This document shows positions 1,506-30,194 of a DNA stretch of 31,733 bases, piece after piece (positions within the stretch are counted from its first letter, which is position 1; each line of letters opens with the position of its first letter). The DNA is taken from the IMG/VR virus record IMGVR_UViG_3300021371_000066, positions 1 to 31,733 of that record; one strand, written 5' to 3'. The stretch is from a virus. Below the pieces are notes generated by a model. That model was given only the letters and a program-made list of their open reading frames with translations. It was not told the origin of the DNA and did not search any database. The position numbers were made by a program, and so were the translations under genes.

Positions 1506-1735
1506 ATAACGAGAACAAAATTAAAATGCTCCATGATTCCCGAATCCAGATCCGGAATCTTGATTCTCAATGGGTGGCCAAGAAGCGTGAGATATACGCC
1601 AACTTAAAGGACACCCTAGACTTGGGGCCAAAGCACGACAACACCCTATGGGATTACTTGGTGCATGGATTAGAATTCTTGCGGCACGATATTGCCGAAG
1701 CCCTAGAAAACAAAACCAAACAGAAAAATGGATAA
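1502..1735 (+). CDS. Hypothetical small helical protein, 77 aa
   Basis: This gene has no recognised family. It starts at an ATG sharing four bases (ATGA) with the preceding stop and overlaps the next gene by 8 nt. The protein is highly charged and probably all-helical, with a Lys/Asn-rich N-terminus and a C-terminal amphipathic segment (LVHGLEFLRHDIAEALENK). It lacks a signal peptide and membrane segment. No Shine-Dalgarno sequence precedes it, so translation probably depends on coupling. It may be one of the small accessory proteins common in phage early regions. Confidence 0.65.
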   Translation: MNNENKIKMLHDSRIQIRNLDSQWVAKKREIYANLKDTLDLGPKHDNTLWDYLVHGLEFLRHDIAEALENKTKQKNG

Positions 1736-1913
1736 GATAATTAGTGAAACCTTAGAGAAAGAAAAATATCTAAGCGAACGAGATGTTATGAGACTGGCCA
1801 TCCTCCGCGATGAGAAGCTCGTGCTTACTGGCAAGATCGAAAGGCTTGTGGTGATCCGAGATGAAATTAATCAGGAGATTAGCGACATCAGGGAAGGAGT
1901 GCTAGATGAGTGA
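1728..1913 (+). CDS. Hypothetical coiled-coil protein, 61 aa
   Basis: This short, very charged protein is predicted by eye to be one long amphipathic helix. Leu and Ile recur at heptad-like spacing from about residue 8 to residue 58 (EKYLSERDVMRLAIL, then KIERLVVIRDEINQEI). Family unknown. It overlaps the upstream gene by 8 nt and the downstream 32-codon gene by 8 nt, consistent with a compact operon. It could be an oligomerising adaptor or inhibitor, but nothing in the sequence decides this. A similarly sized coiled-coil gene lies at 20441-20623. Confidence 0.65.
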   Translation: MDKIISETLEKEKYLSERDVMRLAILRDEKLVLTGKIERLVVIRDEINQEISDIREGVLDE

Positions 1914-2004
1914 TTGGTTGTTCGATTTAGAGAGGGCAATTGGACTGTTAATATTGGTCTTGCTTGCTAAAGCCACATACCTATTCTCTTACCATGACTC
2001 ATGA
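1906..2004 (+). CDS. Single-span membrane peptide, 32 aa
   Basis: This tiny open frame starts at ATG 1906 and is preceded by AAGGAG at 1894-1899, six bases upstream. That is the clearest Shine-Dalgarno site noticed in the window. The peptide begins MSDWLFDLERAIG and continues into a run of Leu, Ile, Val and Ala (about residues 11-22) long enough for one membrane helix, ending SYHDS. It overlaps the preceding stop by 8 nt and runs past the next start by 11 nt. Function unknown; small phage membrane peptides can act on the host envelope or in lysis timing, which is only an inference here. Confidence 0.5.
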   Translation: MSDWLFDLERAIGLLILVLLAKATYLFSYHDS

Positions 2005-2314
2005 AGAATTATTGGCCCTTCATACTGCTACCAGTGAGCGTTGCCGCAGCATTATGGAGTCTAAAAACAAGGACTACACGGGCGGCAGCGAAGCGTGCGA
2101 CCCGTTCGCCAACTTCCGTGCGTCCGAAACCGTAGGCATCCACCCGATTAAAGGGATCCTGCTCAGGATGCAGGATAAGATTCAGAGGATTAATTCTTTC
2201 GCGAACGACGGTAAGCTAACCGTTAAGGAGGAATCAGTTAACGATGCCTGTGAAGACATCGTAAACTATGCGATCCTTATCAAGGCGATTGCCTCGGAAG
2301 AGCCTAGTCCTTAA
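1994..2314 (+). CDS. Nmad1/DUF1599-like protein, 106 aa
   Basis: The start is taken at ATG 1994 (MTHEELLALH), which gives a normal N-terminus; an earlier alternative start at 1964 only adds residues with no family character. The pattern K-x-KDY near 24-28, DPFANFR at 36-42, an ILLRMQDKIQRI block at 55-66, then EDIVNYAIL at 87-95 matches what I know of the nucleotide modification associated domain 1 (Nmad1/DUF1599) family. That family is common in phages and is linked by gene neighbourhood to hypermodified DNA bases; its biochemical role is not settled. The gene is last in its plus-strand run and overlaps the tail of the oppositely oriented giant gene by 11 bp. The family call is from memory of the pattern, not a search. 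Confidence 0.72.
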   Translation: MTHEELLALHTATSERCRSIMESKNKDYTGGSEACDPFANFRASETVGIHPIKGILLRMQDKIQRINSFANDGKLTVKEESVNDACEDIVNYAILIKAIASEEPSP

Positions 2315-5300
2315 GAGGAACGGTCAGGCTAGGGTATTTTGAATTAGAGTAGTTCATCTGCTTAATTTGACGTAGCCTGTCCCTAGAATTTGAAAAGTGC
2401 CTTTCAAGTTGGGGCTTGGTAGCTTGGGGTTTTAAACCTAAGCCGATAAGGGCGAGCTCATATCTCTGCTTTGATATCCCTGCTGAGTTTGCATCTCTTA
2501 GTTGCAGACCATAATTATATCCCATACCCTGTAGTCCGTTTATCAACCTATGTAATTCACGGTTGTAACGTCTTTGTCTCAGGAATGCTTTGTCGTAGTT
2601 AGCATAGATTTCTCCGTCTAACATTCCGTCAGACTTACCAAGATCTAAGAGTCCCTTATTCTCTCTGGTATCCTTAGCATTATCGCTAAACGCCTTCTGT
2701 GCTATCCTGTCTGGCTCAATTAAGAATGGTCTAAAGGGCATGAATTCTTTCATGATAATCCCCAATGGGCTTGAGAACATCCGCTCAGATTTATCTGAAT
2801 AAAGTGCTTTGCCTGCATCATAGATTGCTTTCCCTGACCTAGGCATATACGCGTTTTGAAGCATATAGTTTGCTTGGGCGGTTAGTTTGTTCTCGTCGGC
2901 TTCATCTATGATCCTTCTACCATATGTGTCTTCATTTAAAGCGACCACATCAATGAAAGATTTTGCAAATATTTGTTCTTGGATGAAAGGTTTTGCCAAC
3001 CCTGTCATCCCGAATATTTCGTTAGAGGTAGTCAACAGATCATCCCCTTTCGCGAAACTTTCAATCCCCCGCATGAAAGGTTCAATGTATGAACTTAACG
3101 GGTTAACAAAAGTGTGGTCAACTACATATCTAGATCCTCCGGATTCAAAGAAAGTTAAGCCCGCATCCCGCATCCATGTTGGAAGTCCCATTCTGGTAGT
3201 CCATGCTTGGTCGTCGGGGTCATCTCCACCCAGCAATAACTCACTCCCTTTCGTTACGGCTAGGGTGGCCCCCACAGTAGTTACATAACCGAATACTCTC
3301 CGACGCCCCCTCGCTTTAATAACGGGGTTGGAGCTCTCCAATTCTCTTTGAGCTTGAGCTAATCCGGAGAAGAAAATCCTCGGAGGTTCTGCTGCGAAGC
3401 GAATGAAAGTTCCAATGACGGTAGATAATGCGTTGTTGGTGAAGCTCTTCACCCAAGGCATAGCCTTGCTGTATGCCTGCGCTGTGTTCTTTACTATTTC
3501 AGCAGCCTGCTCCTCCAACGCGGCAGTAGGGACTATTTTCCCGTCCTCCTCAAAGATCATTTTACTAAGGGGATCGTTGTCAGGAGCGATTTTAGCTGCT
3601 TCAATTAGTGTCTGGAGCTCAAAATCATACAGACCAATTTTGAATACGCCATCAGAGGCTTGTGCTAAACGCCCACCAAGATCGATCAAAGCTTTTGATG
3701 CTTCTTTTACGGTGGAGTAGGATACGGCAGCCGGAACAATCCCATACTTGGCCATGATGTCTGAGACCTCAGTAGGTATTTTCTTACCTGAGCTTTTGTT
3801 TATTATCTCAGAAGCTTTTTTCTCAAGTCGCCCAATGGTTTTTATATCTTTTATTAACTGCTTTCTCGATACTCTCCCCGTTAACAAGTTTTTAATTACA
3901 TTTGCCTCTACTTCATCGCCGTAAACATCCATCGTTCTCAGCTTTGAAAGATAAAAATCCATATCTGCTGCATCACCTCTAAATGCTCTTAAAAAAAGAG
4001 AAGACTGCTCTTGCTCAGGGGTGAAGACTACTTCCTTTATTAACTTCGCAGGTTCTACTATGGCGTCTAAAACGCTGCCATAATAACCTTGAAGGGGGCC
4101 TAGAACGGAACCATTCCCCAGAAGGTTTCGTATGTAGAAACCGAAACCTCCCAGAGTGTTAACCGCGAGTGACAAACCCGTAGCCTGCTTTATATAGGAG
4201 CCTATCTTTCTAAAAAATCCTTCCCGCTCATTTTTAAGGTCCGTATATTCTTTTCTGCCTTGTTTAAATACGTCAGCGAAATCACGAATGATATGATCCG
4301 GAGCATACATATCTCGGAGAGGCATTAAATCACTGTCGCCTTGGTCATCCGCAACTTTATCCCAGTTTGCGTATTTATCTGGGTCGTCTGCGGGCGGGTT
4401 CTCATATTCTTCTTGTGTTATGAGCCATGGTTCCTGACTCTTGGTCCCTAATTCCTTGATCTTGTTGAAGAAAGATTGGTTCGCGACTAGGGATGAAGTG
4501 TGCAGTAAGGTGGCGCTTAAATTTTCAATACCCTCAGAGTCTCCATACTCTCCTAATACTGCTCTGATCTCGTCAGGAATATCTTTCTTTTCATTAATCT
4601 TCTCAGCAAGTGCCCGCATTGTTGGATCCTTGAATTGCTCAGGAATAACAACCTGTTGCTGCCCCGTTATGTTAGTGAGCTTGAGCTTCTTGCTGTTTTT
4701 GTTTTTCTCATATCCTTTTATGAAGTTTCTAACCATCTCCATGCCTTCCGACATGTGCTTAGAACTGTTCATGCTAATGTCTTGATCAATTCTGCGAGCA
4801 GCCTCTTGCGGAGAAATCCCCATTTTCTTAACCATTACGGGAACTTCCAGCATAGCTTTTTTGCGTGAGAAGAACATTGCAGCAGCCTCCCGCTCTTTCG
4901 AGTAAGTGTCGTCGGACATATCCAAGACTTGTTCTGCAAAGTCATTGTCTTCAAACATCCTATACCGTCGGGTGTAGTAGATGCCCCTATTGAAATCAAA
5001 AGCCATCTCAAGGTCATGTGGGTTCATACTCGGCCCAAACACCTCCATCGCTTTCAAAGAAAGTTTATCTTGCAGGTCTCTCATCCTCACAACAAGAGAA
5101 TACATTTTTGGAGACAACCTAAACAATTCGCTTAACGCCGCATCTCTCCGCTGTAGTAAGCTGTCGCGCTTGCCAACTCGTGCAGCTTTGGTTGCATTTT
5201 CTTTCTTTGTCTTAGCGGCATTCTCTGCTGCTGTTCTCGCTCCTCCGACTAGGCGTTTAGCTGCCTCAATATCGGACAAATAATCATTTTGGATTTGATC

Positions 5301-8300
5301 TATTTGAGACTGTGCAAGTTCAGTCCCTTTGCTTGCGCCGGAAGCAATAGCAATTAATTCAGCGGGGATATCAACACCCAACCTTTTGTTCTCCTCAGCT
5401 AATATGGTATCGTGCTCTGCTTGAAAAGAGGAGACAGTGTTCGCGATCTCCCTAGCGAAAGCTACCGATTTCATATAAAAAGAAACCAACCTACGATCCC
5501 CCCTGCGTGAGAATGTTTTGATTGCAGTCCTTTTTATTTTACGACTCCAGTTATTCTTTTCGGGGGCATCGATATCATACTTGGAAAAGTCCATGATGTT
5601 GACATCGAGGTGTGAGAACCAAGAACCAATTTCTTTTTCTTGTAACTCTACAGGTGTTAAGAACTGTGGAATTTTACTGTCCGACCCAAACTGAGATTCA
5701 AGGTCGAGGTTAGCCTGACTAAGCGTTTGTCGAGGGGCTTCTTTCTTAGGCCCTTTTGCTACAATTAAATTGGCTCCAACTTTTTCAACGCTATCAAAAT
5801 GACGTTCTATTTCAGAGATGTATTCCGAAGTCTTCTTAAAGTTCTGGAAACCTTTTTTAGTTTCTCTGGCGCCCTTTGCCTGATCCTCTTTACTACCTTG
5901 ATAAATCAAGAAATATGCGGAGCCGTTTTCTTTAACAGCATTAGCAGCCTGACGGACAACTTTATCCCTGTTTCCTGACTCCTGAATCACGTTCAAGACA
6001 CTGTTTACGGTAACGGTGTCCGCACCCCCATTCTCAATACGGGATGCAACTTCTTCGTTATGCTCTTTTGATCTATTGAACGGATCAAAGATTAAGTTTT
6101 CTACTCCATAAGTATCGTCTAGTTCTTCTGTTCCATTATCGAAACGACCTCCACCGATGTCTGCATTGACACCGCCCTCTTCAAACTTAACGACTCCCTT
6201 CTTAGCTAAACTACCAAAAGTAGCGGGCAGCTTGCCGCTGTTAATAGAAGTGTCACCACTACTAAACTCTTGGTCTGGTGTTGACCAAAGATCCTCATCA
6301 GTTTCTGTAGGTGGTGTGGCAGGCTCCGCGTTTTTAACTGGGGCTAGTTGCCTAGTCTCAGCGAATTGGCTGATCATCGTTTCAATGATCTGCTCGCTGT
6401 TCCTCATGTTGTATTCCATCTGCCCACTTGATGGACGATAGCCCAACTCCATCGCACGGATTTCGCGAACGACGTTGTTCACTGCCAACCTAGTCTCGTC
6501 AGACAACTGCTGCGAAGAGCGGTGATATACTAGTTTACTTAGGAGGGCTTTAAGATACTGAACGAATGTGGGTATCAAGCTTGGGTTCGTGCTAAGGAAA
6601 GCTATCTGTTGATTAGTTGTTGTCCCCCTTATGGCTCTACTAGCGTGCTCAACAATAAACTCGTTAGCTAACTTATATTTTTCTACAGAAGAAGTCTCGG
6701 GGTCTTCACTCCTTAATCTTTCGAGAGCTTCGGCCTGTTGGTCTTGAGGATAATAGGCTTCAAGAGCACGGACAAAATCATCTTCGACCATAGAGTTAGC
6801 CACTCCGAGTATCTGCTGATCTGTCAGCATTTGGTTTGCTGCTGCGTGCCCAATCTCCTCATTCATCAGAGCAGCCAGAACAGCTTCTTTCCGGCTATTA
6901 CTGAGCTCCATACTGTTAAGTTTAACAGCCGCTCTAATGGGGTTGAATATAAGTTGTCCTGTCTCATCATCTATCTTAGCGATGACGCGAGAAGTCTCAT
7001 CCACCTGCATGACAATCTCATCGGGGACGTAGTCCCTTGCGAAACTAAGAAGATTCTGTGAGTCTTCTAATAATTTAAGTTGAGCTTCTGCATCTCCTGA
7101 GATGTCTAGATCTTTAGCAATACGAGAAGCTCTTCCTGTGGAATAGAAAACTTGTTTTGAAACAGCTTTAGTAAATGTGTCTATGGTAAAGACAGAGTCC
7201 GAGGTATAAGCAAAAGCGGCTTCCAGACCTTCGTTAAGGGTGACGATCTTCTTATCTAAGAATTTGGCTATTGCTCTAACAATACTCTCAAACACACCGT
7301 GCTTTTTATTAGGCTCGGCAGTTACGTTTTGCACATAGGTTTGGAAATCCTTATCTGTAAGAATGTAAGCCACAAACTCTTCCATATTAGCTGTAGCTGT
7401 GCGTGCGTTTCTGTTGAAACCCATCGTGGCACGGCGGCGGACATACTTTCTAAGCCTATTTAGTTCTGCAAAAGCAGCGTCTTGAGTTTTAGTTCTCAGA
7501 TCTGCTCCGTAGAACATCATGTCTACAGTAAACGCGTGGATGTATTCGTGTAGTAGTGTCCCCTGTAATCCGTATTCCCCACTCGCTTTTCTTACTGGGT
7601 TAATCGTGACTGTCTTAGTCTCCGCATTATACATTCCCGCATAAGTCTCCAACGAAGATTCAATTTTGAACTTAACGCTCCGAATATATGCTTTGTTTTT
7701 CAAAAGCATTTTCGCAACTACCCGTAAAATCTTAGGTCCACTCTTCTCAATTTTTTCTAACGCAGCAATAACAGATTCCGGATCCCCACTAGCTAAACCT
7801 AGTTCTTCGATAGCCTCTCTGTTATCTTTGATGTTCTCTGAAATAGTCTTTGGATTGTTTTTTCCTGATCCAATGCGGAAGAACTGCCGCGATCCCTTCT
7901 TTATTCTAGTGTGAAAATCATCGATGTGTTTTTCATTAAGTGAGAAACCGAAAACTTCTTCAAATTTCTTACCAAGATAGGCACTAAACTCTGGGTCGGC
8001 GTCAGGGTCTTTACCAATCATTGGATTACCAATGCCTAAAGCCCGTATAGAAAAGTCTAATTGAGTGGCACTTTGATTGCCCTTGTCAGAAAGTTCTTTT
8101 AACTTTTGTAAGAAATCAACAACCTTTGAGTTGGATATGTTGTTACCTTGTGAAAACAAATAAACTACATTATCGGCTACACGACGTGGAGTTAACCCTG
8201 CGCTGACGAATGTTAGAGGCTCATCATACATTTCAGAGTCCAGCAATTCATCCACTAATCCCCGCAACTCAGCATCAGTTTCCAAAACGTCAACTATTTC

Positions 8301-11300
8301 ATCGTGCTCCCCATGAAGGAAATCATCAGTGCCCGTTTCATGTAACGTTGGGAGGGGATCCAGATCCACAGGACTGTCCGTATCTTCCGCTACTTCAGGT
8401 CCGATTTGATCTCCCCTGCGTGTAATCTTGCTGCCCTTGTCTATTAGTTGAGCGATAGTTTTTCCTGCTTGTTCAGCACGCGCTGCTGCAATTTTTGCAT
8501 TAGCTTCTACTTCTGCGTCGGCTAACTCTTTAATGTTAAAGCGGGGTCCATTTTTACCCTGCTCAATAGCTACCGCTGTCTGATAAATTCTTTTCTCAAG
8601 CTGCAGTCTAAATGTTATCGCGGCAGTTTTGTAATACCTATCCCTAACTTTTTTAGTCGTGCCAGATTCTTTTGTGTTTCTGATAGCCGCATTACGCTCA
8701 ACTAACCTCTTAGGCATAGTGCTTTCGGGGTCTTTAATAAGAGCTAAAAGATCAGAAAGACTGATCTCTCCATCTTGTGGGACACCCAAACGCTTCATAC
8801 CCGCGAAAGGATTCTTCACTTTCACGTCAGGAATAACTGTATCTTGAAGTCCTTTTACTTCATTAACTAGTTTTCGGACTGGGCGATAGTCAGAGATGTG
8901 GTCTACAACCTGATCTGGTTTTAAGTAGGATACGGCCGAGACTAAACCCCCCCGTGTTGAGATGTGGATATCAGTAACTTGCCACTGCCCGTCCACTTGA
9001 TTAAATTCAAATGCCGGATTGACCTGCGAGTTCTCTTGCTTAGATAGGTTAACAATCTCTTCACTAACTGGAATAGTAAAACCCCCACTAAAGAAAGTAA
9101 GCATTGATTGGGGGTCGTTATTAAAAATACCCGCCCCGTTCTCATCGAGGTAAACAAACCTTTGGCTTCGATCGGAGGAAAAAAGATCCGGCAATTTTAT
9201 GAGTGGGTTTTTCTTAGTGCTCTTAATTTTTATTGCGGGATACTTCTCTTCAATCTTATCTGAAATATATTTAGAAAGTTGCTTTAGATCTTTAGGCTCG
9301 GCTTTGTCTAAATTGAGATTAAACGCCGCTAAGTGCTCCATAATCAAAGACACCGGATAACCTGCTTCAATAAGCTCAGATACTTGTTGAGTATCTCCTT
9401 CAGTTATTGGCCCTTGTTCTTGTTCTTCGGTTGTTTCCCTATCAAATTGTTTGTCGATGAAACTACGCGCTTTGTCGGCGTCTGTGTCCGTCAATAAAAT
9501 TCCCCGAGACCTTAGCTCATTGATTTTATTTTCGACATCTTGTTTCTGATCATCGGGCAGAGAGTCGAGTAAGCTTTTAGCTTGGACATATAAATCATTA
9601 GAACGTTGGATCCTATCGTAGGCGTCGGCTTTTTTCTGCTCCGGTGTTCGGTAAGAGGTCACTCCGACAGGACCACCACCAAGTTCTTTCGTCAGGCTTT
9701 CTTTCCCAAGTAATTCTAAAATATCGGACAGGGCTTGATTGCCGGAAACTTCAGCGGTATCTGCTGATTCGTCCTCGTCCATTACCCGCTCAAGAGCGCC
9801 ACCTAATTCGTCTTTATCACTTGCAGCTTGAGCACTTTCAAGATCTGCTTTCAACTGTTTGGCTTCAGCATCTGCGAGATCCTGTGCTTTGTGCGTTGCA
9901 AGGGTTCCTCGGACAGAAATAAATTTCTGCTGCTGTTCATAGGACATAGCCTCCCAACGACCCGCGTCTATTTCTTCTTGAATATCCTCATTTAGTATGC
10001 GTTCTGCATCATCTAAAATAATCTTATCCTTTTGTGCTTTGTCCGTAGGTTGTTGCGGAAGTTTTGTCTCATTTGTAGAACTCTCATCCGTTTGATTTTG
10101 TGTTTCAGCAGTTGGAATCCCACGCTCTTGAAGAACAGCAAAAACTTGAGGCGCGTTTTTCTTTAGTTCATCGTATTTTTTAGCAAGCTCTGTGTCTTGT
10201 GCAGCTTTCTTTTGAACATTTTTATCAAATTGGACTATGAGATCCTTCTCCATTTGATTTAAAGCTTCCTTATCTAAAAGCTTGTTCCCAAGAAAAGGTG
10301 TTTTACTCGCACCGTATTTAAGCACGGGTCCCGCCGCACCCATAGCCATACCTATTTTAAAACCCATGAGTCCCCGCTGCATGATTACATGCATCGGTGT
10401 GGTTTCATTCGTGTAAACATCTTGGATCATGCTGTTTACAACTTCATCTAATCCTTCTTCAAAACCCTCTCCGAGAACAGAACCGACAAGAGTCGTCGCG
10501 CGCCCACCCATTCTTTTAGTGAATGTTTGCCGCATAGCCGTTTTCAACAAGCCTGTTAAACCTTTGTCTGTAACAGCGTATCCAGCCACACGGCTTGCGG
10601 CAGTTTTGAATTGCTTATAAGTGACCCCTTTAAGAAAAGCAGTTTCAAGACCGCCACTTCCTTTTAAGCCTTTAAAGGTTTTACCCCCGAATGTCCCACC
10701 CCCTGCAATACGGCCCATCCCCGCTGTTAAAAATCCAGTGAACGCACCACCAACTAAAAACCCGCTTTGCCCCCCTTCGTGGGCTTCTTCGTGAACTCTT
10801 TCTTTACTCCACCCTTCGTCCCACTGTCCATTTTTAAAATGCTTCTTTGTTAAGCTCTTTTCGAGCGAAGTATAAACAGCCTCATAAGTTGAACTACCAC
10901 TACGTAGTGCTGCCGGTACAAAAGTAGCAGTATCAATAGCTAAATCTTTTGCTAAATTAGAGCTATACGCTTTCAGAAAAACCGTCGCTTCTTTAGGAGA
11001 CAAAGAACTTAATGCCGCAATAGAGCTTGCGTCTATACCCGATTCTGCTGCGGATTTGTAAAAGGCTCTACTTGTAACCGATTTATACATGGTTTTCACC
11101 ACGGCCTTTGCGGAAGCTTTTGTGGTAAAGTATGTCGTGAGCCCCGCTAAAGAAACTCCTGCTGTTGGTTTGGCGGCTACCGCAGCAGTAGCGGAGACAA
11201 TCATGTCGGCAACCATTGGGGCCGCTTGCTCGGAAAGATCATACCCAAGACCCATTTCGACTCCGAATACTTCTGCTGCCTTCCTATTATTATAAACCTC

Positions 11301-12836
11301 CCTAGCATTTGCTTGTAATTCTCTAACAGCCGATTCGCTGCCTGCCATTGCTTTCACTCCATAATAAATGTTTTGATATGAGTGAACGACACTTTGCGCT
11401 AGTCCTCTGGTTTTAAAATTAAAGTCAGGGTTGTCTTTTACAAATTTTACAACAGATTCACCCCCGCTTAGACCTAGCCCCTTTGCCGCCTGTTTAGCCT
11501 CGGTCCATTCTTCAGAATATCTTTCAGACAAAACTTCATCTACTTCATCATAATTTAATTCATTATCAGCGATTCGTTTTGCATTAGCAAATTCTTGTAG
11601 CTCTTTAGGAACATCCGCTTGCTCCAACGCCTCCATGTATTGTTCAGGTTTGTAATTTAATTCACTTTTTACAATAGGTCCGAAAGAAGTAGTTTCAGTT
11701 ACGTTTTGTTTTAAATCATCTTCATCAAATAATAAAGTAGACTCAAAACCATAAGCTCCCCCCGCCCCATCATTAGTGATTTTATTTACGTAGTCCTCAA
11801 AAGCTATGTCAAAGTCTGGCCCGCTGCGACCAAGTCTGTAAGACAGACTATTTTTTACCGAGTTATAAAGCTCTTCTTGATTGAAATCTTCAGCATAATC
11901 TCTCTTATCTTTAAACTGACGCTGAAGAAGCATCTCAGTTGTGTTTACTTTAGCTTCATCCGAAAAAAGATTTTGAAGATCGCCTAATCCTTTACTAAAG
12001 TAGCCCAACGTTTCTGCACCAAATTCTAGAGTGCTATGTAAGGCGCGATCAGACCAACCCATTGATCTATCCTTACCCCTATTCATTGCAAGAGCTTGGA
12101 TCGAAGCTTTTGTTTTCCCAAATCGTTCCTCCTCAACAAGTGAATCAATGGCATGAACGTGGCTTTTTAGTCTGAAGCGGCTATAATTATTCTTATTGTT
12201 CGGTCCCCCTTCATTGGGCACCATGTTTGGTCTCAGGGAAAGAATATCTCTCGCGGCGGCCCCGAATGTTTCCCCACTTCTTAAAACATCTACTTCATTT
12301 GTGCCTTCAACAAAACCGCCTCCTAGCACCGTCCGCACACCTTTTTTGTCGTAGTATACGCCTATGGGTAACTCTTCGTTATTGAATTTGTATTTGACGA
12401 GATCTTCTCGCTTCGCCCGCATCCTTTCGCCAAAACTTTCTAAGAACCCTTCGGCATACTCCTCACTATCAGTTTGTTTTTTAAACTCCTCAATAAGCTC
12501 TTGGTCTTCTATGTTGAGAACATCTGCCTTGACGGAAAAATCTGTCCCTTTTATAGCATTTCTTTCTAAGAAATTTACATTTTCAGCCACAGTGGGAGTC
12601 CTTAATTCTTTTATTCTTTGTGTGATTTCTTGGGGTTCACCATAGCCGCTCCGCAAAAGCAAAAGATTTTGCTGCTCCTGCATCGCTGAATAAAGAAACG
12701 GGGTTAGTTTCCCCGCATTTAACAATTCATTAGTTGTGTAGTCATTATACTTGAGGCGGGCCTCAACCGCATCAGATGTTGGGTTCTGTGCGGACCATTC
12801 AGAAAATTTCTGAAGTTGTAGTTTGGGAGTTTCCAT
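2304..12836 (-). CDS. Giant 3510-aa polyvalent virion protein with peptidase-like and methyltransferase-like domains
   Basis: This single uninterrupted frame takes a third of the window. Roughly in order: a charged N-terminus; Ala/Gly-rich hydrophobic stretches near 540-560, 690-720 and 815-840; a low-complexity Gln/Asp/Glu region near 890-1130; a zincin-like domain with HEYIH at 1763-1767 and a likely third ligand in MEEFVAY near 1818; a second similar segment with EEIGH at 1993-1997; a class I methyltransferase-like fold from about 2210 to 2365 with ADIGGG (D2226), DPFNRS and a VTVNSVLNVI strand; long helical regions; and a C-terminus with IRNLLGN near 2900 and a hydrophobic stretch near 3190, resembling regions common in phage polyvalent proteins. 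Such giants are known or proposed to be packaged and ejected with DNA. It follows terL and two smaller genes on the same strand, which fits an internal virion protein. No RNA polymerase motifs of the N4 type were found. Confidence 0.85.
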   Translation of the reverse strand: METPKLQLQKFSEWSAQNPTSDAVEARLKYNDYTTNELLNAGKLTPFLYSAMQEQQNLLLLRSGYGEPQEITQRIKELRTPTVAENVNFLERNAIKGTDFSVKADVLNIEDQELIEEFKKQTDSEEYAEGFLESFGERMRAKREDLVKYKFNNEELPIGVYYDKKGVRTVLGGGFVEGTNEVDVLRSGETFGAAARDILSLRPNMVPNEGGPNNKNNYSRFRLKSHVHAIDSLVEEERFGKTKASIQALAMNRGKDRSMGWSDRALHSTLEFGAETLGYFSKGLGDLQNLFSDEAKVNTTEMLLQRQFKDKRDYAEDFNQEELYNSVKNSLSYRLGRSGPDFDIAFEDYVNKITNDGAGGAYGFESTLLFDEDDLKQNVTETTSFGPIVKSELNYKPEQYMEALEQADVPKELQEFANAKRIADNELNYDEVDEVLSERYSEEWTEAKQAAKGLGLSGGESVVKFVKDNPDFNFKTRGLAQSVVHSYQNIYYGVKAMAGSESAVRELQANAREVYNNRKAAEVFGVEMGLGYDLSEQAAPMVADMIVSATAAVAAKPTAGVSLAGLTTYFTTKASAKAVVKTMYKSVTSRAFYKSAAESGIDASSIAALSSLSPKEATVFLKAYSSNLAKDLAIDTATFVPAALRSGSSTYEAVYTSLEKSLTKKHFKNGQWDEGWSKERVHEEAHEGGQSGFLVGGAFTGFLTAGMGRIAGGGTFGGKTFKGLKGSGGLETAFLKGVTYKQFKTAASRVAGYAVTDKGLTGLLKTAMRQTFTKRMGGRATTLVGSVLGEGFEEGLDEVVNSMIQDVYTNETTPMHVIMQRGLMGFKIGMAMGAAGPVLKYGASKTPFLGNKLLDKEALNQMEKDLIVQFDKNVQKKAAQDTELAKKYDELKKNAPQVFAVLQERGIPTAETQNQTDESSTNETKLPQQPTDKAQKDKIILDDAERILNEDIQEEIDAGRWEAMSYEQQQKFISVRGTLATHKAQDLADAEAKQLKADLESAQAASDKDELGGALERVMDEDESADTAEVSGNQALSDILELLGKESLTKELGGGPVGVTSYRTPEQKKADAYDRIQRSNDLYVQAKSLLDSLPDDQKQDVENKINELRSRGILLTDTDADKARSFIDKQFDRETTEEQEQGPITEGDTQQVSELIEAGYPVSLIMEHLAAFNLNLDKAEPKDLKQLSKYISDKIEEKYPAIKIKSTKKNPLIKLPDLFSSDRSQRFVYLDENGAGIFNNDPQSMLTFFSGGFTIPVSEEIVNLSKQENSQVNPAFEFNQVDGQWQVTDIHISTRGGLVSAVSYLKPDQVVDHISDYRPVRKLVNEVKGLQDTVIPDVKVKNPFAGMKRLGVPQDGEISLSDLLALIKDPESTMPKRLVERNAAIRNTKESGTTKKVRDRYYKTAAITFRLQLEKRIYQTAVAIEQGKNGPRFNIKELADAEVEANAKIAAARAEQAGKTIAQLIDKGSKITRRGDQIGPEVAEDTDSPVDLDPLPTLHETGTDDFLHGEHDEIVDVLETDAELRGLVDELLDSEMYDEPLTFVSAGLTPRRVADNVVYLFSQGNNISNSKVVDFLQKLKELSDKGNQSATQLDFSIRALGIGNPMIGKDPDADPEFSAYLGKKFEEVFGFSLNEKHIDDFHTRIKKGSRQFFRIGSGKNNPKTISENIKDNREAIEELGLASGDPESVIAALEKIEKSGPKILRVVAKMLLKNKAYIRSVKFKIESSLETYAGMYNAETKTVTINPVRKASGEYGLQGTLLHEYIHAFTVDMMFYGADLRTKTQDAAFAELNRLRKYVRRRATMGFNRNARTATANMEEFVAYILTDKDFQTYVQNVTAEPNKKHGVFESIVRAIAKFLDKKIVTLNEGLEAAFAYTSDSVFTIDTFTKAVSKQVFYSTGRASRIAKDLDISGDAEAQLKLLEDSQNLLSFARDYVPDEIVMQVDETSRVIAKIDDETGQLIFNPIRAAVKLNSMELSNSRKEAVLAALMNEEIGHAAANQMLTDQQILGVANSMVEDDFVRALEAYYPQDQQAEALERLRSEDPETSSVEKYKLANEFIVEHASRAIRGTTTNQQIAFLSTNPSLIPTFVQYLKALLSKLVYHRSSQQLSDETRLAVNNVVREIRAMELGYRPSSGQMEYNMRNSEQIIETMISQFAETRQLAPVKNAEPATPPTETDEDLWSTPDQEFSSGDTSINSGKLPATFGSLAKKGVVKFEEGGVNADIGGGRFDNGTEELDDTYGVENLIFDPFNRSKEHNEEVASRIENGGADTVTVNSVLNVIQESGNRDKVVRQAANAVKENGSAYFLIYQGSKEDQAKGARETKKGFQNFKKTSEYISEIERHFDSVEKVGANLIVAKGPKKEAPRQTLSQANLDLESQFGSDSKIPQFLTPVELQEKEIGSWFSHLDVNIMDFSKYDIDAPEKNNWSRKIKRTAIKTFSRRGDRRLVSFYMKSVAFAREIANTVSSFQAEHDTILAEENKRLGVDIPAELIAIASGASKGTELAQSQIDQIQNDYLSDIEAAKRLVGGARTAAENAAKTKKENATKAARVGKRDSLLQRRDAALSELFRLSPKMYSLVVRMRDLQDKLSLKAMEVFGPSMNPHDLEMAFDFNRGIYYTRRYRMFEDNDFAEQVLDMSDDTYSKEREAAAMFFSRKKAMLEVPVMVKKMGISPQEAARRIDQDISMNSSKHMSEGMEMVRNFIKGYEKNKNSKKLKLTNITGQQQVVIPEQFKDPTMRALAEKINEKKDIPDEIRAVLGEYGDSEGIENLSATLLHTSSLVANQSFFNKIKELGTKSQEPWLITQEEYENPPADDPDKYANWDKVADDQGDSDLMPLRDMYAPDHIIRDFADVFKQGRKEYTDLKNEREGFFRKIGSYIKQATGLSLAVNTLGGFGFYIRNLLGNGSVLGPLQGYYGSVLDAIVEPAKLIKEVVFTPEQEQSSLFLRAFRGDAADMDFYLSKLRTMDVYGDEVEANVIKNLLTGRVSRKQLIKDIKTIGRLEKKASEIINKSSGKKIPTEVSDIMAKYGIVPAAVSYSTVKEASKALIDLGGRLAQASDGVFKIGLYDFELQTLIEAAKIAPDNDPLSKMIFEEDGKIVPTAALEEQAAEIVKNTAQAYSKAMPWVKSFTNNALSTVIGTFIRFAAEPPRIFFSGLAQAQRELESSNPVIKARGRRRVFGYVTTVGATLAVTKGSELLLGGDDPDDQAWTTRMGLPTWMRDAGLTFFESGGSRYVVDHTFVNPLSSYIEPFMRGIESFAKGDDLLTTSNEIFGMTGLAKPFIQEQIFAKSFIDVVALNEDTYGRRIIDEADENKLTAQANYMLQNAYMPRSGKAIYDAGKALYSDKSERMFSSPLGIIMKEFMPFRPFLIEPDRIAQKAFSDNAKDTRENKGLLDLGKSDGMLDGEIYANYDKAFLRQRRYNRELHRLINGLQGMGYNYGLQLRDANSAGISKQRYELALIGLGLKPQATKPQLERHFSNSRDRLRQIKQMNYSNSKYPSLTVPLKD

Positions 12837-12890
12837 AAAGCTTTAGTCTGACTTCGCAGAAGCGATAATTTTAGATCTGTGTGGTTGTAA

Positions 12891-14120
12891 CTAGTTGTTG
12901 GCCGCCTCTTGCATTTCTCTCAAAGCATCTAACTCGGCCTGAGTCACCCCTTGTTGTGGGGGTGTGCGGGCCTCTTGACTTTCAGCGGCTTGGTTCGCAG
13001 CTTCAACAAGCTCGCTCGTTGGTAGAGGAGTTACTGATGGAGTTACTGGTAAATCTTCTTGTCTAACTTGTTGCATAACTTTTTGTTGTGGGAGTTCAAA
13101 ATTACCAGAAGCGGCGGCGCTTTCCATAGCTTGGAGAGCGGTATTCAACTTCTCTATTCTCGTTTGGACAGTGTCGCCTTTTTGTATGCCTGTTGAGAAA
13201 GTGCCGTATGGGGTTTCGTAAGCTCCAATATTAAAGAGTTCAGCCACCATTTGCGTGTATTGTTCTTTGGCAGCAGCGGCATCAGCCGTGTTTGCTGTGT
13301 CTCTACCTGCCTCTTGCGCTATTTTTAGAGCCATTTCGCCCTCGGCTTTCGCTTGATTAACTATCTCCATCATGTCCTTTTGCCTGTCTTGCAAATTGCT
13401 TAAATCTTTTCTCCTAGAAGCAATTATATCGCTAAAGAAACCGCGCTGCTCATTGATTGTTTTTAGTTTAGCTGCCCGCCTTTTCTCATCTTGTTCAAAG
13501 TTATAGCGCCTAATGTTTGAATTAGTAATCCCCATAAGCAGATCTTTGGTTTCTCCGTCGGCCATATTCACCAACCAAGGAGCATCGGGGAAAAGATTGT
13601 AGGCAGCGGCTTTAAACCGCATATCCTGTTCTCGTCTTTGTGTAGCGGTTATTGCATCTTGTTCCCGTTCCTTGGTCCGGAAATCAGGAGCCAAACTAAA
13701 CGTGGAAGCCTCCATCAAAGTTTTACCCCAGCTTCCTTTTGCTAAAGTTTCGGCATTCTGAATCTTAATGTCTGCAATCCTTTTAGTCCGTTCATTAGGA
13801 TCCTCTATTTGTTGCGCTGTGTATAGTGCATCCGCTATGCCTCCGAGTTTACCATCCGCTTCTTGTTGCTCCTCATAAGCCCTTCTCTTTTGATCAATAG
13901 TAAGAAGAGCATCCTGATATGCTAAGTCTTGGGCTTGTCTTTTACGCTGGGCGTCTTGCAACTTCAACGTCCGTTCCATCTCTGGATACAGCGTCTTTTC
14001 ACGCGCACTTTGAACGACTTCAAACTCTTGAGGATTAAGATACTCTCTCTGAGGAAGGAAGTTGTTTTTGTTACGCAAAGGTGCAATATCTCTAGGGGGG
14101 TCAAAGTCTAATTCACTCAT
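12891..14120 (-). CDS. Coiled-coil probable internal virion protein, 409 aa
   Basis: This protein is rich in Gln, Glu, Ala and Arg and is mostly helical by eye. Extended coiled-coil stretches run about residues 35-90 (AREKTLYPEMERTLKLQDAQ) and 210-290. A less charged patch near 120-200 contains DAPWLVNMADGE, and a Pro/Thr-rich linker precedes the C-terminal helix (ELDALREMQEAANN). No enzyme motif is visible. It lies between the 336-aa protein (6 bp gap) and the giant protein (54 bp gap), all on the minus strand behind terL. This setting and composition fit an internal or ejected virion protein, or a scaffold-like partner of the giant. Family not recognised. Confidence 0.6.
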   Translation of the reverse strand: MSELDFDPPRDIAPLRNKNNFLPQREYLNPQEFEVVQSAREKTLYPEMERTLKLQDAQRKRQAQDLAYQDALLTIDQKRRAYEEQQEADGKLGGIADALYTAQQIEDPNERTKRIADIKIQNAETLAKGSWGKTLMEASTFSLAPDFRTKEREQDAITATQRREQDMRFKAAAYNLFPDAPWLVNMADGETKDLLMGITNSNIRRYNFEQDEKRRAAKLKTINEQRGFFSDIIASRRKDLSNLQDRQKDMMEIVNQAKAEGEMALKIAQEAGRDTANTADAAAAKEQYTQMVAELFNIGAYETPYGTFSTGIQKGDTVQTRIEKLNTALQAMESAAASGNFELPQQKVMQQVRQEDLPVTPSVTPLPTSELVEAANQAAESQEARTPPQQGVTQAELDALREMQEAANN

Positions 14121-14126
14121 AATACT

Positions 14127-15137
14127 TTAAGCAAGGGATGGGATGTTCACTCGATCAAAGCGGTTCTGATTCAAGTTGGTGGCCATAGCCGCCTTCATTA
14201 TTTCCATATTCAGTTGCTGTTGTTTCTGCGTATCCTTATTAATTTGTTCTAAAGATCTCCTTTGATTTACACTTTGAACTGCGGGGAAATCCGGACCCAA
14301 GGCATATCTCATCTCTAAAGCTCTTGCGGCCTCTGGCGCGCCTAGTCTTTTAAGCTTACGCGCGCGTATCAAATCTCTGTTTGGGGAATATGTTCTCCCT
14401 CGGGATCCATATCCGAGGCTGCGGTCGCTATCCAAAGGCCCCCTACTTGACCCTCCTCCAGAGCCTTGCGAACCATATCCGACTCTACGGTCACTATCTA
14501 AAGGCTTGCCGGAGGCACCCCCAGAGCCTTTAGAACCATATCCGACTCTACGGTCACTAGCCAACGCACCAGTGCCCCCGCCCACATCGGGTAGCTTTAT
14601 CTTCCTGTCTCTTTTATTTTTCGCTGTGATATCTATGATCCCCTTGTCATAAGTGAGCTGGGGGTTCTCAACTATAGGACCTCCTTTAAAGCCCTCAGTA
14701 ACAAAATTTGTAACTGGGTCTTTTTTGTTCAGGGCTTCCTCCCCTTGGCGAGTTGCTTCAAGCAACAGGTCTCGGGCTAAATCTCGATTAAATGTGCTTT
14801 TCTTTGGTTTCTCTTTGCCCCCCACCAAACTTAAAAAATTTTTATATTTTTCATCTCGGCTTTGCGGCGCCTGATTTGAATAACCTTGGAACCGTTTCGC
14901 TAGTTGCGCGGGGCTATCCGTAAGCTTATTAATCAAACCTGTCATTTTATCGACCGAACCTCTATAGTCTTGAAGTGAAACATATTGTCCGGCATCCTTA
15001 TCATTAGACCCTTTTTTTGGCTTCCTCCGAACAGTGGGGGGAATCGGAACCTCTTCATAAGGAAACATAGATTCCGCTGGGCGCATCGGTGGCGCGTTGA
15101 AAAAATTTTTAGTAAGATCTCCTTCCGTAAGTGCCAT
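14127..15137 (-). CDS. Glycine-rich repeat protein, probable virion protein, 336 aa
   Basis: The N-terminal third is polar and Pro/Lys-rich. The middle (about residues 190-255) contains three copies of a 21-22 residue Gly/Ser/Arg repeat with the core SDRRVGYGS. The C-terminus is helical and Gln/Asn-rich (INKDTQKQQQLNMEIMKAAM). There is no catalytic motif, signal peptide or membrane span. The ATG at 15137 is preceded by a sigma70-like promoter whose -10 box ends six bases before the start codon, with no Shine-Dalgarno site, which supports this start. It begins the apparent 336 aa, 409 aa, giant protein series. A role in the virion core or DNA ejection is inferred from position only. Confidence 0.6.
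   Translation of the reverse strand: MALTEGDLTKNFFNAPPMRPAESMFPYEEVPIPPTVRRKPKKGSNDKDAGQYVSLQDYRGSVDKMTGLINKLTDSPAQLAKRFQGYSNQAPQSRDEKYKNFLSLVGGKEKPKKSTFNRDLARDLLLEATRQGEEALNKKDPVTNFVTEGFKGGPIVENPQLTYDKGIIDITAKNKRDRKIKLPDVGGGTGALASDRRVGYGSKGSGGASGKPLDSDRRVGYGSQGSGGGSSRGPLDSDRSLGYGSRGRTYSPNRDLIRARKLKRLGAPEAARALEMRYALGPDFPAVQSVNQRRSLEQINKDTQKQQQLNMEIMKAAMATNLNQNRFDRVNIPSLA
14407..14559 (-). repeat. Three tandem coding repeats, 63-66 bp period
   Basis: Three copies of a related segment start at plus-strand positions 14407, 14473 and 14536. The right two share the block CCATATCCGACTCTACGGTC; the left copy differs at a few bases. Spacings are 66 and 63 bp, whole numbers of codons, so they encode 22- and 21-residue units (SDRRVGYGS-type) within the 336-aa protein. 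Confidence 0.85.
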
Positions 15138-15143
15138 GAGTTA

Positions 15144-15172
15144 AGTTTATCTTTTTAAGTTGACTATGTCAA
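15144..15172 (-). promoter_or_regulatory. Sigma70-like promoter for the 336-aa gene, leaderless geometry
   Basis: On the minus strand a perfect -35 TTGACA (15172-15167) is followed by a 17-bp spacer and a -10 TAAACT (15149-15144). The -10 ends six bases before ATG 15137, so transcription should start at or next to the A of the start codon. The -35 overlaps the terL stop codon and lies inside a short inverted repeat, TTGACATAGTCAA (15160-15172). Confidence 0.6.
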
Positions 15173-16956
15173 TCGAGTAGCATTGTCTCCGAATTAGACA
15201 GGGCGTTAGATAAATGTTTAATCGTGGTCCGGCGTAAGGGCTGCCCTAGGCTTTCCTTATCTGGGGGGTCCACTGCTACTAGACCCAACCGCTGACGGGC
15301 ACAGTCCAAGGCCAGAAACGCTGCATCTGCAAGGTCTGGGCTCCTTCCGAACCTAGCTTTAAACTCTGGTTTCGATTCGATCTTCATACGGAGAGTCCCG
15401 CTTTTGACCATATCATAATTCCTAGCAGTCATTTCTTGAGCTAGCTCAGAATTAATACCGAATATTTGTTTCGTCCGCATCAATTCCTTCCCTACAAACC
15501 ATAGCTCGGACACACGGTTAACATACAATTCCGCCCCTATTTTAGAACTGTTCGCGCTAACACGCTTGTCGCTGGCTTTCCCACCAAAGGAAATACGCAT
15601 AAACTTGTTTGACCATTCTCCAGCTAACACGTCACAGAATGGAGCCCCCGCACCCGTGGCATCAACACTTAGGTTCTCTGGCAACACACCATGCTTTTTA
15701 CATTCTTTCTTTACCTGCTCAACTATTTGGTAAGTTCTTGGGACAGCTTTATTTGTGGCATCGTCATTGAGATGAATAATTTTTCCAAATTCGATAACAT
15801 ACTGACCAGTAGTGTCATACCCACATTTGGCTAAAGCTAGGCACGTACGATCACCCCCATTCGTAAAACTGGGATCGAGGCCCGCTAACATAACCGAATT
15901 TCCTTGCCAGTTTACTTTCCCCAAAGAACCAGAAGACGTGAGTTCGTTCTCCGAATAAATTCCCGTGGTCTCATCACTGTCAAAAAACACAGCTCGGACC
16001 ATTCGCATATACCCCCGACTCTCAACCCCCAATAGGGCCTTATCTTCTTCAAGTTTTTCTTGGGTTGGGAGCCATGGATATATTGTTTCTCCAGCTAATA
16101 TGTTAGGAGATCTTTCCCCATCTAAGCGAATATACTTTCCATTCCACTTAGTATCCCACTCATCTTCAGTATTTGCGTCAATAGAATCCCAGCCATTCTT
16201 GGGCGTAGACCATTCACCGAAAGCATCAAATCGGCTGTTTGGGTTACTCATCCCAACCATCTGAAAATACGGGTTTTTTGATAAGTTACTGAGACCCGCG
16301 TTTAAGATGGCTGACGAGAGCTCACTGAGCTCGTCCGCTAAAAGTAGCACCCTGCGTTGTTTTAAACCGATAAATTTGCCGATTGCTTCCTTTGTTTTAG
16401 ACTTCTCAGCCGCGATCAAAGACAACCCTGCTCGTTCGATCAGGGTTCCCTTCTCATTGATGTAGGAGGCATTGCCTATTGAATCGCGTATCTTGATTGG
16501 TGCTCCGTCAATCACGGATAGCAAGGACATGACTGAACCCCAAATCCTTTTTCGTGCCTCCCGTAAGGTGGTTGATGTCATGAGAACCAGTGTGTCAGCA
16601 GGCTGACTCAACCAATTAATAATTCCCCATGCCGCCATGGTGTGAGATTTACCAGAGGACGCAGAACCACCAACGGCTAGATATTTATTTTCTATGGCTG
16701 CACGAATCATATACGTGGCCCATGGATGGCGAACCATTAAAGGCTCAGGTAAATCTTCGTGGTTCCATAGTTCATCGCAGCATCTCCAGAAGTAGTATTC
16801 CTTTGCAGAAGGAGACTCATGATGCGCGAAGCCGTAAAGCAACGCGGTCAATAAACTAGTAGGCGGAATTGTGAAGCCACCCACATCCATCTTTTTTGTG
16901 GTTGGATCTATTTTGGGTTCCAGTAACTGCTTGCCCCTAGTCTCATTTAAAGCCAT
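15169..16956 (-). CDS. terL: Terminase large subunit (ATPase and nuclease), 595 aa
   Basis: This is the DNA packaging motor, which cuts concatemers and pumps DNA into the prohead. The ATPase half has a Walker A motif GSASSGKS at residues 97-104 (K103), a Walker B LLLADE ending at D208-E209, and a MVGMSNP segment that fits the coupling motif. The nuclease half has the RNase H-like acidic residues: D361 in AGLDPSF, D432 in SVDATGAG, and D541/D544 in SPDLADAAF. Its length is normal for the family. The start codon is 17 bp from the oppositely directed small-terminase-like gene. A sigma70-like promoter lies upstream, partly inside that neighbour, and no Shine-Dalgarno site is present. Downstream are the 336-aa, 409-aa and giant genes. 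Confidence 0.95.
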   Translation of the reverse strand: MALNETRGKQLLEPKIDPTTKKMDVGGFTIPPTSLLTALLYGFAHHESPSAKEYYFWRCCDELWNHEDLPEPLMVRHPWATYMIRAAIENKYLAVGGSASSGKSHTMAAWGIINWLSQPADTLVLMTSTTLREARKRIWGSVMSLLSVIDGAPIKIRDSIGNASYINEKGTLIERAGLSLIAAEKSKTKEAIGKFIGLKQRRVLLLADELSELSSAILNAGLSNLSKNPYFQMVGMSNPNSRFDAFGEWSTPKNGWDSIDANTEDEWDTKWNGKYIRLDGERSPNILAGETIYPWLPTQEKLEEDKALLGVESRGYMRMVRAVFFDSDETTGIYSENELTSSGSLGKVNWQGNSVMLAGLDPSFTNGGDRTCLALAKCGYDTTGQYVIEFGKIIHLNDDATNKAVPRTYQIVEQVKKECKKHGVLPENLSVDATGAGAPFCDVLAGEWSNKFMRISFGGKASDKRVSANSSKIGAELYVNRVSELWFVGKELMRTKQIFGINSELAQEMTARNYDMVKSGTLRMKIESKPEFKARFGRSPDLADAAFLALDCARQRLGLVAVDPPDKESLGQPLRRTTIKHLSNALSNSETMLLD

Positions 16957-24712: not shown

Positions 24713-25211
24713 GTAAATGATACCCGCTCACTTTATATTGAAACCCATAACTGTCCGACTCTCCTCGACGTTTATAGTGTTTTTTATTCTGTATATATGA
24801 AGCTGTTTGCCACCCCAACAACCATGCAGTAGACATATCTTTTTTTACTCTAGTAAAGAAGTATGCTTTCGCGCCTAGCTTTTTAGATTTATTGCAATTA
24901 ACAGAGGCGGTATACTCGGGCTTGGGAATAGACGTGCAGGTCTTAGACTTCACGTCTATTGTCTTTTTGCCCAAAACGTAGTCGTGCGTAAAAGAACTAT
25001 CCCCCACATATTTAGCTAGTGGATATAGCTTTTCAAAAGCAATCTCCCCAATAAACCCTGTCATACGACCTGCTCCCCTCGTAAAAGAATTTGGCAAAAC
25101 CCCTAAATCTTCACTCCTCTCAAAAGCCTCTTTTATATCATCCCCCGTTGGTGTGAACACAAGCATTCCTTTTGCTCGTGTGAACTGTTGGGGAAGCTTC
25201 CTTCTACTCAT
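24675..25211 (-). CDS. PD-(D/E)XK nuclease-like protein, 178 aa
   Basis: Start ATG 25211 (MSRRKLPQQF) overlaps the upstream stop by four bases and has a purine-rich AAAGAG ahead of it; a longer frame begins further upstream inside that gene. Candidate active-site residues follow the restriction-fold order: E56 in GFIGEIAFEK, D77 in HDYVLG, then D86-V-K88 in TIDVKSK. Similar small phage proteins are endonucleases of the restriction or repair type. Its role here (host DNA degradation, resolution or packaging) is unknown. It is the last gene of the lysis-side minus-strand run, an unusual place for a nuclease, and overlaps the primase-helicase tail by 38 bp. Confidence 0.65.
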   Translation of the reverse strand: MSRRKLPQQFTRAKGMLVFTPTGDDIKEAFERSEDLGVLPNSFTRGAGRMTGFIGEIAFEKLYPLAKYVGDSSFTHDYVLGKKTIDVKSKTCTSIPKPEYTASVNCNKSKKLGAKAYFFTRVKKDMSTAWLLGWQTASYIQNKKHYKRRGESDSYGFQYKVSGYHLPISLLRRANSLK

Positions 25212-26516: not shown

Positions 26517-26517
26517 T

Positions 26518-26694: not shown

Positions 26695-26696
26695 GG

Positions 26697-27697: not shown

Positions 27698-27704
27698 GGC
27701 GGGG

Positions 27705-30191: not shown

Positions 30192-30194
30192 CTG

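What the first reader, a model, noticed from the sequence alone, without database searches (positions are those of the whole stretch)
2304..12836. A 3510-residue phage protein combining a zincin, a methyltransferase-like fold and hydrophobic segments
One frame carries HEYIH (1763-1767) with a downstream Glu, an ADIGGG/DPFNRS/SVLNVI methyltransferase-like block (about 2210-2365), Gly/Ala-rich hydrophobic stretches and a polyvalent-type C-terminus. It sits behind terL with two helper-like genes. Known polyvalent phage proteins are thought to be injected with DNA to protect it or act on the host. This combination in a gene of 10.5 kb looks like a multi-enzyme payload.
Basis: partly seen in the sequence, partly recalled or inferred. 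Interest (0 to 1): 0.75.

Follow-up and report, generated by a model that had tools for sequence, protein, structure and literature searches.

The report
Injected phage protein with swappable payload slot
A giant phage protein, probably injected into bacteria with the phage DNA, has one fixed slot where related phages carry different enzymes, each bounded by a short repeated sequence that looks like a cutting site for a protease built into the same protein.

Summary
The 3510-aa ORF, its HExxH zincin and its methyltransferase (MTase) block are real. The main result lies in relatives. In the closest relative (88% identical overall) the MTase block (aa 2173-2377) is replaced, with sharp DNA edges, by an ADP-ribosyltransferase-like domain. 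In 29 aligned family rows the same slot runs from empty (47-94 aa between anchors, 11 rows) to 2075 aa, holding MTase, ART-PolyVal, DUF7178, 2H-phosphoesterase-like and other cassettes. In 15 of 18 filled rows a short repeat, [LVI]x[ST]x(hydrophobic)[GA][AGS], lies at cassette edges; its copies are alike within a protein although their codons differ. A second, zincin-like domain (E-E-x-x-H...Y...E) is intact in all 15 repeat-bearing rows and has lost these residues in the 5 main-clade rows (2-3 lineages) without the repeat, where zincin-1 stays intact. The right-hand scaffold weakly resembles phage ejectosome/core proteins and matches polyvalent (LPD) proteins. Best reading: a virion-ejected, polyprotein-like carrier with an exchangeable payload slot, cut at the repeats by the second protease-type domain. 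Slot and exchange are shown; ejection is likely; cleavage is inferred. It belongs with the known polyvalent proteins (PMC5512222); the slot, repeat and coupled decay were not in what I read.

The parts
2304..12836 (-). Giant gene, 3510 aa
6321..12836 (-). Left scaffold, aa 1-2172, shared with the closest relative up to the slot edge
7332..7694 (-). Zincin-1, about aa 1715-1835
   Evidence: SprT-like 1.9e-5, PHROG 2206 1.1e-8, conservation
7536..7550 (-). HEYIH, aa 1763-1767
6582..7028 (-). Second, zincin-like domain, about aa 1937-2085, E-E-x-x-H...Y...E
   Evidence: model topology, residue pattern; homology to zincin-1 not shown
6846..6860 (-). EEIGH, aa 1993-1997
5706..6320 (-). Variable slot, aa 2173-2377
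   Evidence: sharp DNA edges against L002; slot in 29 rows
5745..6287 (-). Methyltransferase cassette core, about aa 2184-2364
   Evidence: pLDDT 95-98, Z 13.7
5679..5702 (-). Junction repeat LESQFGSD, aa 2379-2386, at the right edge of the slot
2577..5564 (-). Right scaffold modelled, aa 2425-3420
12891..14120 (-). 409-aa upstream gene
14127..15137 (-). 336-aa upstream gene
15169..16956 (-). Terminase large subunit
   Evidence: PHROG 2, 1.4e-10

Best explanation
This is a virion-ejected, polyprotein-like carrier. A conserved scaffold (left part with two protease-type domains; right part like phage ejectosome/core proteins) travels with the DNA and carries a variable payload in one fixed slot. 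Phages exchange the payload (here a methyltransferase, in the closest relative an ADP-ribosyltransferase-like domain) by recombination at the slot. Copies of a short phage-specific repeat, [LVI]x[ST]x(hydrophobic)[GA][AGS]x, lie at the cassette edges. I propose that they are cut by the built-in second zincin-like domain (E-E-x-x-H...Y...E), which frees the payload enzymes during assembly or after entry, where they act on the host or protect the phage DNA. Shown: slot, exchange, repeat, protein-level conservation of the repeat, joint decay of repeat and EExxH residues. Inferred: ejection, cleavage, its timing, enzyme activities and targets.
For: Exchange: P0001 and L002 differ in cassette between near-identical flanks; the L002 cassette aligns to the Pfam ART-PolyVal stretch of L127. 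Slot: both anchors in 29 of 29 rows examined, 47-2075 aa between anchors. Cassette types. Repeat: 43 regex hits in slots (18,618 aa) vs 15 elsewhere (91,590 aa), 1.7 expected in shuffled slots; a search without the regex finds it as the top recurring 9-mer in 7 of 15 family proteins tried, with three or more linked copies in L119, L124, L130, L131, L135 and a pair in L116 and L121; copies within a protein more alike than between proteins, 0 of 2000 shuffles (33 copies, 12 proteins); slot length vs repeat count rho 0.85 in 23 rows. Protein-level constraint: 139 of 238 same-residue comparisons use different codons, 160 expected if independent. Joint decay: E1994, H1997, Y2028, E2059 are 15/15 in repeat-bearing rows; in L117, L118, L125, L142 they read Q/Q/E/Q, Q/N/R/H, T/N/H/S, K/K/K/A, while HExxH of zincin-1 is intact there. 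L127, L129 and L131 bear the repeat but have no HExxH in the sequence held. Ejection: top VIA match of the right scaffold is the phiM1 ejectosome; the right scaffold of L151 hits a virion structural PHROG at 3.3e-17; terL lies upstream in 13 of 13 kept loci that hold more than 2.3 kb upstream.
Against: No cleavage was observed. The second domain lacks the first zinc-ligand His in 28 of 29 rows, and hhalign does not join it to zincin-1 (probability 1%), so it may be a non-catalytic binding domain. Nine repeat-less rows keep EExxH-type residues (HELGH in L151, QEMAH in L156), eight of them with empty slots; an RFx[AD] word in 7 of those 8 empty slots is only a guess at an older site. L125, L142 and L156 have cargo without a matching repeat. 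A fifth conserved column, R2134, not an active-site candidate, is also changed in 3 of the 4 decayed rows. The joint decay rests on 2-3 lineages. The ejectosome match is weak (Z 6.4, model pLDDT 67). P0001 itself has one repeat copy, at the right edge only; nothing matches at its left edge. In L130 the copies are nearly identical in DNA too (4 of 24 codons differ).
Confidence: 0.55

Rival explanations
1. The second domain is a non-catalytic, zincin-derived binder and the repeat is its docking or anchoring site: the repeats hold each cassette on the scaffold, or order unfolding and ejection, without cutting.
For: First His of HExxH is replaced in 28 of 29 rows; joint decay and within-phage similarity of the repeat fit binding as well as cutting.
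Against: Three further residue types (E, H and the downstream E, with Y) stay invariant in 15/15 repeat-bearing rows, the pattern of an active site; L151 has a full HELGH.
Confidence: 0.25
2. The repeat is mainly a short homology linker that helps cassettes recombine into the slot; it has no role in the protein.
For: Repeats lie at cassette edges; in L130 the copies are nearly identical in DNA (4 of 24 codons differ).
Against: Overall codons differ in 139 of 238 cases, near the 160 expected if independent; the joint decay with the EExxH residues is unexplained.
Confidence: 0.1
3. An ordinary polyvalent protein: the intact HExxH zincin-1 does the processing (or acts on host proteins), as proposed in PMC5512222, and the second domain and repeat are incidental.
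For: Zincin-1 keeps HExxH in 23 of 29 rows at the aligned place and is related to the zincin of virion RNA polymerases.
Against: Repeat-bearing L127, L129 and L131 have no HExxH in the sequence held; zincin-1 stays intact where the repeat has decayed.
Confidence: 0.15
4. The payload serves the phage's own DNA (for example the methyltransferase shields it from restriction) or the virion, rather than attacking the host; the slot is an anti-defence cassette.
For: Exchange between close relatives and the mixture of nucleic-acid-type cassettes (MTase, 2H-phosphoesterase-like) fit an arms race with host defence.
Against: ART-PolyVal cassettes are postulated in PMC5512222 to modify host proteins; substrate of the MTase unknown.
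Confidence: 0.4

Closest known systems
Polyvalent proteins (Iyer et al. 2017, PMC5512222)
   Same: Large multidomain protein near late genes; zincin, ART and LPD-type parts in the family; proposed there to be injected and processed by metallopeptidase domains
   Different: Here one fixed slot, exchange between near-identical scaffolds, a phage-specific junction repeat, and a second EExxH domain that decays together with the repeat; I saw none of these in the sections and passages I read
N4-type virion RNA polymerase (PHROG 2206)
   Same: Similar length (profile of 3406 positions) and a related zincin (1.1e-8)
   Different: No RNA polymerase match in the window protein; a slot with exchangeable cargo instead
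phiM1 ejectosome protein (PDB 8vb2) and E1004 core protein (9vvp)
   Same: Right scaffold aligns over 249 and 269 residues (Z 6.4 and 4.8)
   Different: Weak structural similarity only; the window protein adds a payload slot and two protease-type domains
Polymorphic toxin systems (as contrasted in PMC5512222; otherwise recalled)
   Same: Exchangeable effector modules on a constant delivery scaffold
   Different: Slot is internal, not C-terminal; carrier is a phage protein; junction repeats at cassette edges
Polyproteins of eukaryotic RNA viruses (analogy drawn in PMC5512222)
   Same: Proposed cutting of a chain at repeated sites by a built-in protease
   Different: Unrelated domains; exchangeable cargo; cleavage not shown here

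Membership tests
Polyvalent proteins (phage type) | Several disparate domains in one chain | tested here: met
   zincin, EExxH domain, MTase cassette, large conserved scaffold
Polyvalent proteins (phage type) | Located near virion/late genes | tested here: met
   terL directly upstream in the window and in 13 of 13 kept loci with more than 2.3 kb upstream
Polyvalent proteins (phage type) | Carries domains of the polyvalent set (MPTase, ART, LPD) | tested here: met
   zincin related to the N4-polymerase type; ART-PolyVal in relatives L127, L129, L131; LPD-named structural matches
Polyvalent proteins (phage type) | Packaged and injected | not testable with these tools
   only indirect:
Zincin metallopeptidase (zincin-1) | HExxH plus downstream Glu | tested here: met
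   present in P0001; 20/20 HExxH and 19/20 Glu plus one Asp in A5 rows; SprT-like just under cutoff
Zincin metallopeptidase (second domain) | HExxH plus downstream Glu and zincin fold | tested here: inconclusive
   EExxH with Y and E in most rows, HELGH in L151; hhalign to zincin-1 1%; Pfam SprT-like 0.16 in L151 only
Class I SAM-dependent methyltransferase | Rossmann-like MTase fold | tested here: met
   pLDDT 95-98; Z 13.7, 157 residues, rmsd 3.2 to 7bgg
Class I SAM-dependent methyltransferase | SAM binding and methyl transfer | not testable with these tools
   conserved ADIGGG, DPFNR, VLNVI
ART-PolyVal (cassette of relative L002) | Match to PF18760 and H-Y-D pattern | tested here: inconclusive
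   no direct Pfam hit (nor for L115); aligns at 1.2e-7 to the PF18760 stretch of L127; H, Y, D read by eye
N4-type virion RNA polymerase | RNA polymerase module | tested here: not met
   no RNA polymerase family match to the whole protein in Pfam, PHROGs or NCBIfam

The most novel reading that the evidence does not exclude
Phages inject a self-processing effector polyprotein: a constant ejection scaffold with a plug-in slot, phage-specific cleavage sites at the edges of each plug-in enzyme, and a dedicated EExxH-type metalloprotease domain that evolves and decays together with those sites.
Probability: 0.45. Interest if true: 0.9.

Novelty: new variant of a known kind. Interest (0 to 1): 0.8.

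Why it matters
PMC5512222 predicted that giant phage proteins are injected, may be cut by their own zincins and, for one kinase locus, may vary by cassette recombination. This family gives a defined slot, a set of interchangeable cassettes, candidate cleavage sites that mass spectrometry can look for by sequence, and a candidate protease with natural loss-of-function variants. It also offers a simple way to find new phage host-takeover or anti-defence enzymes: read what lies between the repeats.

Tried and rejected
N4-type RNA polymerase: only the zincin is shared; no RNAP match. Membrane segments: none above the threshold in P0001. Repeat as recombination seed alone: codons diverge. Homology of the two protease-type domains by profile: not significant. 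PDB by sequence for the MTase, zincin and ART slices: only hits with E 0.046 or worse to unrelated proteins, or none. NCBIfam gave no usable name; Pfam and PHROGs gave none for the second domain. tblastn of aa 1-1000 against phages: no match. Eighteen unrelated giant MTase-bearing ORFs searched for comparable repeats: only single pairs, except three copies of an Ala/Pro-rich word in L034. Family member L148 also shows a three-copy Pro/Glu-rich word.

Rows dropped: 15 of the 43 loci L114-L156 were left out before the counts (same contig, near-identical or cut: L123, L132, L134, L141, L143-L147, L152, L155; short ORFs with a weak C-terminal match: L137-L140); 28 kept plus P0001 = 29 rows. Near-duplicates remain among the 29 (P0001/L114, L117/L126, L133/L136, L148/L149, L127/L129/L131). 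Two of the 43 in-slot regex hits lie inside cassettes (L119 2705, L130 2964); they count and were removed. The regex was written after reading several slots; L135 (5 hits in the slot, 1 elsewhere) had not been read and is the only fairly independent hold-out; L129 and L131 had not been read but are close to L025, which had. The regex misses a clear copy at the right edge of L128.
Full report
Observation. The ORF is as described: 2304-12836 on the minus strand, 3510 aa, behind a terminase large subunit and two other genes. The window is a 31.7-kb virus record with matches to DNA polymerase, helicase, primase, exonuclease and endolysin families. HEYIH is at 1763-1767 with E1820. The Pfam SprT-like match is 1.9e-5 on the slice, just under its cutoff, and the slice matches the virion RNA polymerase PHROG at 1.1e-8; PMC5512222 reports an HEXXH zincin in N4-type polymerases (passage). 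The MTase block folds at pLDDT 95-98 and matches class I SAM-methyltransferases at Z up to 13.7. No 19-residue window of P0001 reaches mean hydropathy 1.4.

The swap. The closest relative, L002, has a 3539-aa protein, 88% identical overall: BLAST gives 91% over aa 1-2244 and 84% over aa 2347-3510. Between P0001 aa 2173 and 2377 the two are unrelated. DNA identity is 29-30 of 30 bases in the last blocks before the left edge (27-30 over the last 200 bases or so), 8-11 of 30 inside both edges, and 30 of 30 again from the right edge. The replacement is ART-like: it aligns at 1.2e-7 (24% over 231 aa) to the stretch of L127 that Pfam calls ART-PolyVal at 3.2e-21, although Pfam does not call it directly. 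Which state came first is unknown.

The family. Scans of viral contigs with the MTase, right-scaffold and left-scaffold alignments gave relatives. Of 43 loci were dropped as duplicate, cut or weak; 28 remain, 29 rows with P0001. All 29 have the left and right anchors. The stretch between anchors is 47-94 aa in 11 rows ('empty') and 281-2075 aa in 18 (P0001's 281 includes about 76 scaffold residues). Cutting slots at the repeats and clustering the pieces gives recurring cassettes: MTase (P0001, L121, L125, L127); DUF7178-type (L128 at 3.5e-31, L120 at 7.5e-11, L116 at 0.0036, below cutoff); ART-PolyVal (L127, L129, L131); a 2H-phosphoesterase-like one (L116, tRNA_lig_CPD 1.2e-6); and several unnamed ones, of which L130's ART-clustered piece has no Pfam call. 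L127 and its close relatives L129 and L131 also differ in cargo, a second case of different cargo on near-identical scaffolds.

The MTase as a module. Of 91 loci with the MTase (80 viral, 11 genome contigs), 47 carry it in reading frames of 1000 residues or more, up to 4252, and 8 in frames under 250 (frames run stop to stop and some are cut by contig ends; a few loci are duplicates of one contig).

The junction repeat. The regex [LVI][QEHKLRY][ST]x[LIFWYVMH][GA][ASG]x occurs 43 times in slots (18,618 aa) and 15 times elsewhere (91,590 aa); shuffled slots give 1.7. 15 of 18 filled slots have it, 0 of 11 empty ones. A search that did not use the regex finds the repeat as the top recurring 9-mer in 7 of the 15 family proteins tried (L116, L119, L121, L124, L130, L131, L135), five of them with more copies than any shuffled protein. 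Copies in one protein are more alike than copies in different proteins (0 of 2000 shuffles; 33 copies in 12 proteins), so the repeat follows the resident protein. Same-residue positions use different codons in 139 of 238 comparisons against 160 expected under independence (L130 is an exception with 4 of 24), so selection acts mainly on the protein. P0001 has one copy, LESQFGSD at 2379-2386, at the right edge of its slot.

The second protease-type domain. The model shows, after zincin-1, another run of three short strands and a helix carrying N-E-E-I-G-H. E1994, H1997, Y2028 and E2059 are invariant in all 15 repeat-bearing rows. In the main clade's repeat-less rows they are lost: E1994 reads Q/Q/E/Q, H1997 Q/N/R/H, Y2028 T/N/H/S and E2059 K/K/K/A in L117, L118, L125, L142 (L126 equals L117). 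Of 18 columns conserved in at least 14 of 15 repeat-bearing rows, these four and R2134 are the ones changed in three or four of the four; the other 13 mostly stay. Zincin-1 stays intact in these rows. In the tree they form two or three lineages, so the Fisher values (12/0 vs 0/5, p 1.6e-4; 11/0 vs 0/4, p 7e-4) overstate independence. Read by eye, the corresponding repeat positions in these rows look eroded rather than deleted. L127, L129 and L131 have the repeat and the EExxH domain but no HExxH in the sequence held, which lacks their N-terminal ends. Against: nine repeat-less rows, eight of them empty and outside the main clade, keep EExxH-type residues; seven of the eight empty ones have an RFx[AD] word in the slot, which might be a single older site but is close to guesswork. 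L151 has HELGH. Profile comparison does not join the two domains.

Delivery. The right-scaffold model is of moderate quality (pLDDT 67). Its top VIA match is the phiM1 ejectosome (Z 6.4, 249 residues), and the only other listed match with over 200 aligned residues is the E1004 core protein (Z 4.8, 269 residues); such Z values are weak. Viral-library matches include many proteins named 'large polyvalent protein associated'. L151's right scaffold matches a PHROG 'virion structural protein' at 3.3e-17 and L148's at 0.0012; the window's own does not. phi14:2 g065, weakly similar to the zincin slice (E 0.3), is annotated from MS/MS proteomics. Ejection is therefore likely but not shown.

Literature. 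Of PMC5512222 I read the abstract, sections 8, 9, 31, 32 and 34, and passages. It proposes injection, zincin processing, and possible cassette recombination for one kinase locus; I saw no junction motif, fixed slot or EExxH domain there. Of PMC11654794 and PMC10504331 I read passages; the first is on the Pseudoalteromonas phage whose ART-annotated protein matches aa about 3108-3314 of P0001 at 28%. Searches listed no paper whose title or shown abstract start describes this; most subscription literature and all preprint servers except what PMC holds are outside the library.

Verdict. A new variant of the polyvalent-protein theme. My odds: exchangeable slot about 0.95, ejection about 0.8, cleavage at the repeats by the EExxH domain about 0.5.

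Noticed in passing
L017, L018, L020 (about 9428-16333) and L019: Other viral contigs carry a 2302-residue frame (cut in L019) that shares aa 1690-1864 of the window protein at 20-22%, next to a 2505-residue frame.
   Followed up: no
L156:1670-16780: 5037-residue family member whose 655-residue slot content clusters with no other cassette.
   Followed up: no
window 27705-30191: 828-aa protein with GGS-type repeats; the L002 relative is 973 aa, so repeat number seems to vary.
   Followed up: no
L119, residues 2850-3193 of its giant ORF: Cassette with a below-cutoff match to DUF5591 (0.0011), a domain I recall from archaeosine-type enzymes.
   Followed up: no
L021:5500-6525 and L022:5941-6573: MTase relatives on large Vibrio and Photobacterium replicons, annotated hypothetical protein or class I SAM-dependent methyltransferase.
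   Followed up: partly
L025 residues about 1645-3087: About 1440-residue slot with, in order, ART-like, ParB-like and 2H-like stretches (read by eye), then ART, MTase and ART-like stretches.
   Followed up: partly
window 24675-31678: No portal or major capsid protein was recognised; the proteins of 321, 828 and 422 aa have no PHROG or Pfam match at E 0.01.
   Followed up: no
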